A stretch of DNA of 64,000 nucleotides from Bacillus tequilensis KCTC 13622 (GTDB lineage: Bacteria; Bacillota; Bacilli; Bacillales; Bacillaceae): positions 310,001 through 374,000 of the forward strand of contig NZ_AYTO01000034.1 of NCBI RefSeq assembly GCF_000507145.1. Direction: 5' to 3'. The notes under the pieces are model-generated. The model was not told the origin of the DNA and did not search any database. It was given only the letters and a program-made list of their open reading frames with translations. This document shows positions 19,419 through 23,561 of this stretch, piece by piece; within the stretch, counting starts at the first letter, position 1, and each line of letters starts with the position of its first letter. Made by a program: the position numbers and the translations under genes.

Positions 19419-19483
19419 AGTATTTGATTTTTTGTGCAGTGAATAAAAAATAAATCGAACCCGGTAAAGGAGGAGTGGGTAGA

Positions 19484-19795
19484 ATGCTGTAAACCAACCG
19501 CTTCAACTGCAATATCGGTTCTATTCATGGGACACTTCAAAGGATTGTTTCTGACCGGGATACTGTGACGAGATGCTTAGCTGAAAATTAGATGAATGCA
19601 AAGCAAGTGACATCATGAGGGGTGATATCGTATCCATATTATGGAATAACACCCAAATCCGCGGTTTACCCGATTCTTGAAAACGAACGAATTGCAGGCA
19701 TTGTTGCATTAGGCGATCTTTCCGTTAAGAAAGATACTGATCAAAAAAACGGAGAAGCATTAAGCGAAATTTCAAATCAGCATAATAAAAGATGA
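19484..19795 (+). pseudogene. Degraded CBS-domain protein (YhcV-like) upstream of comGA
   Basis: A strong ribosome site (AAAGGAGGAG at 19466-19475) precedes an ATG that meets a stop after two codons. Downstream, fragments of one CBS-pair protein appear in order but in different frames and with internal stops: CNIGSIHGTLQRIVSDRDTV and the following TRCLAEN, then DECKASDIMRGDIVS, then QIRGLP, and last ILENERIAGIVALGDLSV up to GEALSEIS and a TGA at 19793. The layout matches a ~140-residue CBS protein such as YhcV, with at least two frameshifts and deletions of about 50 residues in total. It is therefore a pseudogene, yet still followed by a terminator. Confidence 0.8.
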
Positions 19796-19800
19796 AGTGA

Positions 19801-22400: not shown

Positions 22401-22821
22401 ATTAAACGAGGAGAAGGGATTTACTCTTTTAGAAAGCTTGCTTGTGTTAAGTCTCGCCTCTATCCTCTTGATTGCCGTGTTTACCACACTTCCTCCTGTT
22501 TATGCTAATACTTCTGTTCGTCAGGCTGCATGGCAGCTAAAAAACGACATTATGCTTGCGCAGCAGACTGCAATGTCCACTCATCAAAGAACAAACATTC
22601 TCTTTCAGAGAAACAATTATCAATTAGTCATGGGTGATACGGTAATTGAACGGCCGTATGCATTGGGACTTTCTATAGAACCACAGACATTAAAAGACCG
22701 TTTGGAATTTAATGAGAAAGGTCACCCGAATTCAGGCGGAAAAGTAAGAGTAAAAGGACATACTGACTATGACATAACAGTTTATTTAGGGAGCGGGAGA
22801 GTCAATGTGGAGAGAAAATAA
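22390..22821 (+). CDS. comGD: Minor competence pseudopilin ComGD
   Basis: 143 residues from a TTG start (LNIKLNEEKG...) inside the comGC end; the longer frame starting at 22336 is entirely within comGC. Prepilin cleavage motif EKGFTLLESLLVLSL with Gly|Phe and Glu+5 is clear. Mature part is beta-rich. A minor pseudopilin required for transformation. Next gene comGE overlaps by 17 bases. Confidence 0.94.
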   Translation: MNIKLNEEKGFTLLESLLVLSLASILLIAVFTTLPPVYANTSVRQAAWQLKNDIMLAQQTAMSTHQRTNILFQRNNYQLVMGDTVIERPYALGLSIEPQTLKDRLEFNEKGHPNSGGKVRVKGHTDYDITVYLGSGRVNVERK

Positions 22822-23152
22822 AGGCTTTTCTACAATTGAAACAATATCTGCACTAAGCCTGTGGCTGTTTCTGCTGCTGACAGTCGTTCCTTTATGGAAC
22901 AAGCTGATAGCCGATGAAAAAATGGCAGGATCTCGTGAAATCGGCTACCAGATGCTGAATGAAAGCATTAGCAAATATATGATGACTGGTAAAGACACTG
23001 CGCCAAAAACGGTTACAAAAAACAATATTAATTATGAAATGAAGTGGGAGGAGGAGGGGGAGTATCAAAACGTGTGCATCTCAGCATCAGTTTATAAAGA
23101 AAAACCATTTTGCCGCAGCATTCTGCGGACAGACTGGCTATACGCTTCTTAA
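22805..23152 (+). CDS. comGE: Minor competence pseudopilin ComGE
   Basis: 115 residues. N-terminal ENKGFSTIETISALSLWLF holds the Gly|Phe prepilin site and Glu+5 followed by a hydrophobic helix. Short C-terminal globular part with two Cys (NVCISASV and FCRSIL). Minor pseudopilin of the uptake machine. The GAG-rich stretch (EEEGE) close to its end creates a run of Shine-Dalgarno-like sequence that may serve comGF (see findings). Confidence 0.93.
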   Translation: MWRENKGFSTIETISALSLWLFLLLTVVPLWNKLIADEKMAGSREIGYQMLNESISKYMMTGKDTAPKTVTKNNINYEMKWEEEGEYQNVCISASVYKEKPFCRSILRTDWLYAS

Positions 23153-23156
23153 CGTC

Positions 23157-23561
23157 TTGTTTTCACTTTCCGTCTTTTTGCTCATATCAGGTTCGTTAGC
23201 TGCTATCTTTCAGCTGTTTTTGTCACGACAGCAGGAACATGACGGTTTCACACAGCAAGAATGGATGATATCGATGGAACAGATGATGAATGAGTGCAAG
23301 CAGTCACACGCTGTTAAGACATCCGAGCATGGGAGCGTGCTGATCTGCACCAATCTGTCCGGCCAAGATATCCGTTTTGAAACCTATCATTCCATGATAA
23401 GAAAAAGGGTAGATGGTAAAGGGCATGTTCCGATTCTAGATCATATTACAGCCATGAGAGCTGATATTGAAAATGGGGTTGTTTTGCTCAACATTAAGAG
23501 TGAGAACGAAAAAATGTATCAAACTGCTTTTCCGGTTTACCCGTATTTAGGAGGAGGATAA
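23157..23561 (+). CDS. comGF: Minor competence pseudopilin-like protein ComGF (start unresolved)
   Basis: The coordinates give the part readable from the first conventional codon, a TTG at 23157 (134 residues; another TTG at 23178 would give 127). However the same frame is open back to 23043 and encodes a pilin-type cleavage motif GQTGYTLLNVLFSLSVFLLI directly upstream, which these starts truncate. The real N-terminus is therefore probably upstream, perhaps from a non-AUG codon near 23064. The rest is a beta-rich globular domain; minor pseudopilin role in transformation. Ends one base before comGG with GGAGGAGG overlapping its last codons. Confidence 0.88.
   Translation: MFSLSVFLLISGSLAAIFQLFLSRQQEHDGFTQQEWMISMEQMMNECKQSHAVKTSEHGSVLICTNLSGQDIRFETYHSMIRKRVDGKGHVPILDHITAMRADIENGVVLLNIKSENEKMYQTAFPVYPYLGGG

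What the first reader, a model, noticed from the sequence alone, without database searches (positions are those of the whole stretch)
23040..23200. comGF has a pilin leader but no AUG/GUG/UUG to start it
In the comGF frame the stop TGA is at 23040-23042 and the first AUG/GUG/UUG is TTG at 23157. Between them the frame encodes GQTGYTLLNVLFSLSVFLLI, a good prepilin-type cleavage site plus helix, which a start at 23157 or 23178 removes in large part. A Shine-Dalgarno run (GGAGGAGGAGGGGG, 23047-23060) falls six bases before an in-frame ATC at 23064 (ACG at 23070 is another option). Either translation begins at a near-cognate codon, as with infC ATT in bacteria, or ComGF is made by frameshift from comGE. 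The SD-like run also encodes Glu residues of ComGE, so it may be coincidental.
Basis: partly seen in the sequence, partly recalled or inferred. Interest (0 to 1): 0.72.

Follow-up and report, generated by a model that had tools for sequence, protein, structure and literature searches.

The report
Pilin gene with hidden AUC start
A DNA-uptake pilin gene in Bacillus appears to start translation at a rare AUC codon, kept as AUC, AUU or AUA in relatives from two genera, which would explain why its pilin leader is missed when only the usual start codons are considered.

Summary
The comGF frame has no ATG/GTG/TTG between its upstream stop (23040) and TTG 23157, yet encodes a prepilin leader and helix there. 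The best explanation is initiation at ATC 23064, driven by the Shine-Dalgarno (SD) run just upstream, which is not a coincidence of ComGE coding. In 11 B. subtilis-group genomes that run is the only stretch of 12 or more bases without change in the comGE alignment; its 33 Glu codons are all GAG although GAA prevails elsewhere; the spacer after it varies; ATC is invariant. In 43 genomes of two genera with this SD, the codon 9 nt after AGGAGG is ATC/ATT/ATA in 38; the other five have a canonical start at or next to it. None of the 43 has ATG there. The overlapping ComGE residue varies (Tyr, Asp, His, Asn); the AT is kept. SD pairing equals that of infC (ATT start); TTG 23157 and 23178 have none. 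Frameshifting is unlikely. This is a new member of a known kind (near-cognate AUH starts with extended SDs). It implies that B. subtilis ComGF is an ordinary prepilin whose leader start-codon rules hid. Translation and processing were not measured.

The parts
22805..23152 (+). comGE, whose 3' part overlaps the proposed comGF by 89 nt; comGF lies in the +1 frame relative to it
   Evidence: NF041013 T4P_ComGE 72.3 bits (cut-off 49); the ComGE stop ends at the 14th base of mature ComGF in 24 of 24 genomes examined
23040..23042 (+). stop codon TGA that opens the comGF frame
23045..23060 (+). Shine-Dalgarno element of comGF (tgGGAGGAGGAGGggg), inside comGE codons Trp-Glu-Glu-Glu-Gly
   Evidence: zero changes 23045-23058 in 11 genomes; Glu codons GAG; duplex -14.7 kcal/mol
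23064..23066 (+). proposed start codon of comGF, ATC (AUC)
   Evidence: ATH at this position in 38 of 43 genomes, ATG in none; the 5 exceptions have a canonical start at or next to it
23064..23561 (+). comGF, re-annotated: 165 codons plus TAA, minor competence pilin ComGF
   Evidence: NF041002, 112 bits, cut-off 80; PF15980
23064..23138 (+). prepilin leader, 25 residues (M)KTCASQHQFIKKNHFAAAFCGQTG; predicted ComC cleavage after Gly, 23138/23139
   Evidence: position of Gly-1 and FTLL from the alignments; cleavage inferred
23139..23201 (+). start of mature ComGF: YTLLNVLFSLSVFLLISGSLA hydrophobic N-terminal helix, Asn at +5
   Evidence: helix inferred from sequence and family
23157..23159 (+). 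TTG, first canonical codon; rejected as the main start
   Evidence: no SD (-1.5 kcal/mol); absent in the ten closest relatives (L009-L018), present in L020-L024; would remove the leader and six mature residues
23178..23180 (+). TTG; the homologous codon gives 127 aa in L013 (probably B. subtilis 168; 127 aa is the recalled UniProt length); rejected as the main start
   Evidence: no SD (+0.7 kcal/mol); (L013)

Best explanation
comGF is translated from the near-cognate start codon AUC at 23064. An unusually strong SD, with overlapping GGAGG cores 6, 9 and 12 nt upstream and lying inside comGE, recruits 30S subunits and compensates for the weak codon. Initiator tRNA would insert fMet. The product is a 165-residue prepilin with a 25-residue leader, cut by ComC after Gly to give a 140-residue minor pilin beginning YTLLNVLF. 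Shown: the sequence, its conservation and the dual-frame selection pattern. Inferred: actual initiation at AUC, processing by ComC, and lower yield than with AUG.
For: (a) In 11 B. subtilis-group genomes the only zero-change windows of 12 nt in the 342-column comGE alignment start at 23045-23047 (3 of 331 windows); the spacer 23058-23063 has 11 changes, ATC has none. (b) ComGE Glu codons in the SD are GAG in 33 of 33 cases in those 11 genomes; 51 of 54 against 42 of 221 elsewhere in the comGE frame in 24 genomes; 78 of 92 against 69 of 370 in 43 genomes. (c) In 43 genomes of two genera with the GGR-[AG]GG anchor, the codon 9 nt after AGGAGG is ATC 20, ATT 10, ATA 8, other 5; the next best leader column has ATH in 11 of 43. 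(d) The 5 exceptions all have a canonical start at or next to that codon. Scoring canonical codons 6-15 nt after AGGAGG: 33 ATH only, 5 both, 5 canonical only, none neither. (e) The ComGE codon over the AT is Tyr, Asp, His or Asn. Of the 40 genomes with an NAY codon there, 38 have NAT and the 2 with NAC have an ATG start; elsewhere in comGE 351 of 575 NAY codons end in T; in the 11-genome set 11 of 11 against 96 of 170. (f) SD duplex -14.7 kcal/mol, equal to infC (-14.8), stronger than comGC (-9.6) and comGG (-12.2); TTG 23157 -1.5, TTG 23178 +0.7. (g) ComGE third-position changes drop to 18 in 24 leader codons where 34.8 are expected. (h) 17 of 43 genomes have ATH and no canonical codon between SD and cleavage site. 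(i) infC of this genome carries ATT after GGAGG plus 6 nt (that this ATT is its start rests on established knowledge).
Against: No translation data were available. Species are not independent, so the P values computed are too small. The first third of the leader (23067-23090) is variable, so protein-level constraint there is weak. The GF second base one codon after the ATH is also slow (4 changes on the 43-genome tree, against 3 at the ATH codon). Five of the 38 ATH genomes also have a canonical start close by, and some have ATG or GTG nearer the SD (0-3 nt) that might be used. The pattern is not universal: of 78 family genomes with a comGF frame, 1 was dropped (internal stop), 9 lacked the Trp anchor and 25 lacked this SD. 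The general prepilin models (TIGR02532, Pfam N_methyl) do not hit ComGF at E 0.001, and Glu5 is Asn; a review says that in the B. subtilis com system all putative pilins save one have Glu5 (PMC6370729, passage), yet ComGG here (GFIYPAV) lacks it too by sequence. A 25-residue leader is long.
Confidence: 0.86

Rival explanations
1. ComGF starts at TTG 23157 or 23178; the upstream leader-like sequence is a by-product of comGE coding, and B. subtilis ComGF is an unprocessed membrane protein.
For: These are the first canonical codons. TTG 23157 lies 4 nt after the comGE stop, which could allow reinitiation, and its homologue is present in L020-L024. Two papers list B. subtilis minor pilins without ComGF (PMC10564135 passage; PMC12236230 passages).
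Against: Neither TTG has an SD. TTG 23157 is absent in the ten closest relatives, and the homologue of 23178 is absent in L012 and L019. Such a start would remove the leader and 6-13 residues of a conserved helix, and the ComGF model loses 16.6 bits. It does not explain the conserved SD and ATH. A weak control: all 40 ComGF frames sampled from 36 other families have a canonical codon upstream of the homologous cleavage site. Other papers do treat B. subtilis ComGF as a pilin (PMC10790768; PMC12153270).
Confidence: 0.06
2. ComGF is made by programmed +1 frameshifting out of comGE, helped by the internal SD, as in prfB.
For: comGF is in the +1 frame of comGE, and an SD-like run precedes the junction, as in prfB (recalled).
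Against: No stop codon follows the SD closely in the comGE frame (the stop is at 23150). NAT to ATH slippage does not re-pair, and at the comGE stop TCT to CTT does not either (inference from sequence). The fused second helix would have inverted topology, so ComC could not cut it (inference). It does not explain the ATH codon or the ATG codons that stand in for it.
Confidence: 0.03
3. Initiation at another near-cognate codon of the leader: codon 7 (23061), ACG 23070 or ATA 23094.
For: ACG 23070 shares the SD; ATA 23094 is unchanged in the 11 subtilis-group genomes.
Against: Codon 7 is AGT, AAT, ATT, ATG or ACA in L008-L019. ACG is CCG in L014 and L018 and AAG or AGG in others. ATA 23094 has no SD (-2.0 kcal/mol) and has no counterpart at that place in L019-L024.
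Confidence: 0.04

Closest known systems
infC (IF3) with AUU/AUC/AUA start
   Same: Near-cognate AUH start behind a strong SD; in this genome GGAGG plus 6 nt then ATT, duplex -14.8 against -14.7 kcal/mol
   Different: infC autoregulates through IF3 (PMC5472188, passage). comGF encodes a pilin, and its SD and start lie inside an upstream ORF in another frame
Staphylococcus aureus cvfC1 (AUU) and ccpN (AUA, reported as conserved in B. subtilis)
   Same: Conserved near-cognate start with extended SD (PMC13009471, section 10 read); about 10 % of AUG yield in reporters in poor medium
   Different: Mapped there by retapamulin Ribo-seq and reporters; comGF has only comparative evidence. comGF's SD also codes for ComGE, and AUC/AUU/AUA interchange among species
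Streptomyces sigR (GTC start, repressed by IF3)
   Same: Non-canonical start in an operon gene, misannotated to a nearby canonical codon (PMC5472188, passages)
   Different: GTC codon; the misannotation there is upstream, here (recalled UniProt entry) downstream
ComGF of S. pneumoniae and S. sanguinis
   Same: Minor competence pilin; in S. sanguinis ComGF is cut by ComC (PMC10790768, passage)
   Different: The S. pneumoniae comGF expression primer begins at TTG (PMC8727766, passage); Bacillus ComGF has Asn at +5 and an AUH start

Membership tests
ComGF minor pilin (NF041002 / PF15980) | Score above the curated cut-off | tested here: met
   112 bits, cut-off 80; 86.4 bits, cut-off 27
ComGF minor pilin (NF041002 / PF15980) | Position between comGE and comGG in the comG operon | tested here: met
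Type IV prepilin (class III signal) | Gly/Ala at -1, aromatic residue at +1, then a hydrophobic helix | tested here: met
   TG|YTLLNVLFSLSVFLLI
Type IV prepilin (class III signal) | Glu at +5 | tested here: not met
   Asn at +5; 59 Asn and 16 Gln in 75 family genomes; ComGF E5A is tolerated in S. pneumoniae (PMC8727766, abstract passage)
Type IV prepilin (class III signal) | Hit by the general prepilin models TIGR02532 / N_methyl | tested here: not met
   no hit at E 0.001
Type IV prepilin (class III signal) | Cleavage by prepilin peptidase ComC | not testable with these tools
   needs an immunoblot with and without comC
Genes with a near-cognate AUH start (infC type) | No usable canonical start in frame upstream of essential sequence | tested here: met
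   the window and 9 of its 10 closest relatives (10 of 11 subtilis-group genomes) have none upstream of the cleavage site
Genes with a near-cognate AUH start (infC type) | Strong or extended SD at suitable spacing | tested here: met
Genes with a near-cognate AUH start (infC type) | AUH codon conserved across species | tested here: met
   38 of 43 genomes with this SD
Genes with a near-cognate AUH start (infC type) | Initiation mapped there; sensitivity to IF3 | not testable with these tools
   no Ribo-seq or proteomics data among the tools
Programmed +1 frameshifting (prfB type) | Stop codon in the zero frame at the shift site, slippery P-site codon, SD 3 nt upstream (recalled) | tested here: not met
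   sequence: comGE stop is 90 nt past the SD; TAT-C and TCT-T do not re-pair in +1 (inference)

The most novel reading that the evidence does not exclude
The near-cognate start is a maintained dosage control. Selection keeps AUC, AUU or AUA and avoids AUG so that the pilus-tip, DNA-binding pilin ComGF is made at a low, IF3-sensitive rate matched to ComGE, whose ORF carries the SD. Over the 43 genomes the third base of this codon changed about eight times (seven within the 38 ATH genomes) and no genome has ATG there; the only G is in L034's TTG. The ComGE frame also limits this base, so the avoidance of ATG is suggestive only.
Probability: 0.3. Interest if true: 0.75.

Novelty: new member of a known kind. 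Interest (0 to 1): 0.62.

Why it matters
B. subtilis is a founding model for DNA uptake, yet its ComGF is missing from two of the minor-pilin lists seen here, while streptococcal ComGF is a processed pilin. A start at AUC would remove that anomaly, lengthen the protein by 38 residues relative to the 127-aa form, and bear on constructs and structural models that use the short form. It adds a conserved near-cognate start codon in Bacillota, here embedded in another gene, and shows a comparative signature (SD kept through biased Glu codons, NAT-H kept while the amino acid changes) that could find others where annotation allows only ATG/GTG/TTG.

Tried and rejected
Considered and rejected: TTG 23157/23178, ACG 23070, ATA 23094, a start at codon 7, +1 frameshift (reasons under rivals). 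A first registration of the SD mixed GGG-AGG and AGG-AGG anchors and split the ATH signal over two columns (23 and 24 of 49); it was redone with the ComGE Trp codon as anchor. A first substitution count lost most of comGE in two of 11 genomes through a search-string fault and was redone. Rows dropped: L099 (in-frame stop). In one search the motif was misplaced for L051 and L100 (corrected); it was misplaced for L115, which still has canonical codons upstream. The structure prediction never ran. The PDB profile search gave no hit. The PLoS One 2011 figure mark for absent cleavage sites could not be tied to B. subtilis ComGF because figures are not held. Of the original B. subtilis comG papers one was looked up and not held, the others were not looked up; what I say of the 127-aa annotation (UniProt P25958) is recalled.

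Full report
The window lies in a genome of the B. subtilis group (nearest named relatives B. spizizenii and B. inaquosorum, 90 % and 88 % identical in the ComGF frame) and holds the comG operon. In detail: the comGF frame opens after TGA 23040-23042 and has no ATG, GTG or TTG until TTG 23157, but encodes (I)KTCASQHQFIKKNHFAAAFCGQTG|YTLLNVLFSLSVFLLISGS in between. The NCBIfam ComGF model scores 112 bits with this stretch and 95.4 from TTG 23157. The general prepilin models do not hit it at E 0.001; Glu5 is replaced by Asn.

The frame is not a chance opening. All 44 genomes of the genus have one comGF match, none with an internal stop; in 10 of the 44 the aligned part begins only at query residue 22 or later. 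In 24 of 24 genomes examined the comGE stop ends exactly at the 14th base of mature ComGF. Among the 11 subtilis-group genomes (L008-L018, the window included), 10 have no canonical start upstream of the cleavage site; one (L012) has ATG one codon before the ATC.

The SD is a selected element and not a by-product of ComGE's Glu-Glu-Glu. Counting changes on a tree of the 11 genomes, the only 12-nt windows without any change in the comGE alignment start at 23045-23047 (3 of 331), followed by a spacer with 11 changes in 6 nt, then an unchanged ATC. ComGE Glu codons inside the SD are GAG in 33 of 33 cases there, in 51 of 54 against 42 of 221 elsewhere in the comGE frame over 24 genomes, and in 78 of 92 against 69 of 370 over 43 genomes. 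GAA would be silent for ComGE but would break the SD. The pattern GGAGGAGGAGG-N6-ATH occurs once in the 3.98 Mb genome. Its predicted pairing with the 16S tail (-14.7 kcal/mol; tail sequence recalled) equals that of infC in the same genome (-14.8), which carries ATT behind GGAGG plus 6 nt; the two TTG codons have no SD.

The start codon is conserved beyond the genus. Of 80 family genomes searched, 78 have a comGF match. Of these 78, one was dropped for an internal stop, 9 lacked the ComGE Trp anchor, and 25 had the anchor without this SD (17 genus members with divergent leaders, all 17 with canonical codons upstream; 7 of genus g2; 1 of g3). In the remaining 43 (27 of g1, 16 of g3) the codon 9 nt after AGGAGG is ATC 20, ATT 10, ATA 8, AAT 2, ACT 2, TTG 1. 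The five that are not ATH have ATG one codon before (three), ATG one codon after (one) or TTG at that place (one). Scoring canonical codons 6-15 nt after AGGAGG, 33 have ATH only, 5 have both (L012, L026, L027, L028, L098), 5 canonical only, none neither. The second base of this codon is a ComGE wobble position; on the 43-genome tree it changed 3 times, and the genomes that depart from T there all have a canonical start, against 7 to 14 changes at the same base of codons 3-5 and 8-15 of that register, but only 4 at the next codon. The ComGE codon over the AT is TAT 23, GAT 12, CAT 2, AAT 1 in the 38: the amino acid changes, the AT does not. Of the 40 genomes with an NAY codon at that place 38 have NAT, the two NAC both have an ATG start; elsewhere in comGE 351 of 575 NAY codons end in T. 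The third base of the start codon changed about 8 times over the 43 (7 within the 38), and no genome has ATG there; the only G is in L034's TTG.

Outside the family, 40 of 40 comGF frames taken by hand from 36 families (mostly the best-scoring one per family in the listed part of 248 genomes with matches) have at least one canonical codon upstream of the cleavage site. This is a weak control, since such codons also occur by chance.

Dual coding downstream of ATC is visible: ComGE third-position changes fall to 18 in 24 leader codons where the rest of comGE predicts 34.8. The first third of the leader is variable, as leaders often are. All these genomes are related, so the counts are not independent events.

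Mechanism (inferred from these facts and established knowledge): 30S subunits bind the strong SD inside comGE and initiate with fMet at AUC. The protein has a 25-residue leader, is cut by ComC after Gly and becomes a minor pilin. ComGD and ComGF of the pilus tip bind DNA in streptococci, and models extend this to B. subtilis (PMC12153270, section 9 read; PMC12040237, passages). Near-cognate starts in S. aureus with extended SDs give about 10 % of AUG yield in poor medium (PMC13009471, section 10 read), and IF3 represses the sigR GTC start in Streptomyces (PMC5472188, passages). A weak start for a low-abundance tip pilin is therefore plausible, but the dosage reading is not shown.

Known or not: the searches 'ComGF + Bacillus subtilis' (33 papers, 30 listed), 'ComGF + prepilin + processing + ComC + subtilis', 'comG operon / minor pilin / start codon' (27 papers, 20 listed), 'comGF + start codon' and a non-AUG search including comGF (232 papers, 15 listed, none of the 15 with comGF) showed no report of a non-canonical comGF start. 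I saw listings, and passages of nine of these papers (PMC8727766, PMC12153270, PMC3244431, PMC10790768, PMC10564135, PMC8262900, PMC12040237, PMC6370729, PMC12236230). The library lacks most subscription papers, so this is not proof. Two of the nine list B. subtilis minor pilins without ComGF (PMC10564135; PMC12236230); others treat it as a pilin (PMC10790768), and PMC12153270 models the B. subtilis tip with ComGF after 'minor corrections for ComGF' in its alignment; which N-terminus it used I could not see.

Verdict: real, well supported by comparative evidence, a new member of the class of near-cognate AUH starts, with direct translation evidence outstanding.

Noticed in passing
window 23151-23153 (codon +5 of mature ComGF) and loci: Mature ComGF has Asn (59) or Gln (16) at +5 in 75 family genomes (3 of 78 left out for misplaced or cut motifs), whereas 32 of 40 sampled from other families of the order have Glu; the change roughly coincides with the lineage using AUH starts. 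ComGG of the window also lacks Glu5.
   Followed up: partly
window 19996 and 22390: comGA and comGD also appear to start with TTG, so several comG genes use weak start codons.
   Followed up: no
window 19430-19800: Upstream of comGA, a strong SD (GGAGGAG, about 19470) is followed by a very short ORF and fragmentary coding-like sequence; it may be a degenerate gene or leader.
   Followed up: no
L099 (G066): The comGF frame of this genome carries an in-frame TAA in the matched region; it was left out of counts.
   Followed up: no
L101, L102, L106, L107: In four genomes of genus g2 the SD AGGAGG is followed by TTG at 6 nt and ATC at 9 nt, so a TTG sits directly before the conserved ATC position.
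   Followed up: no
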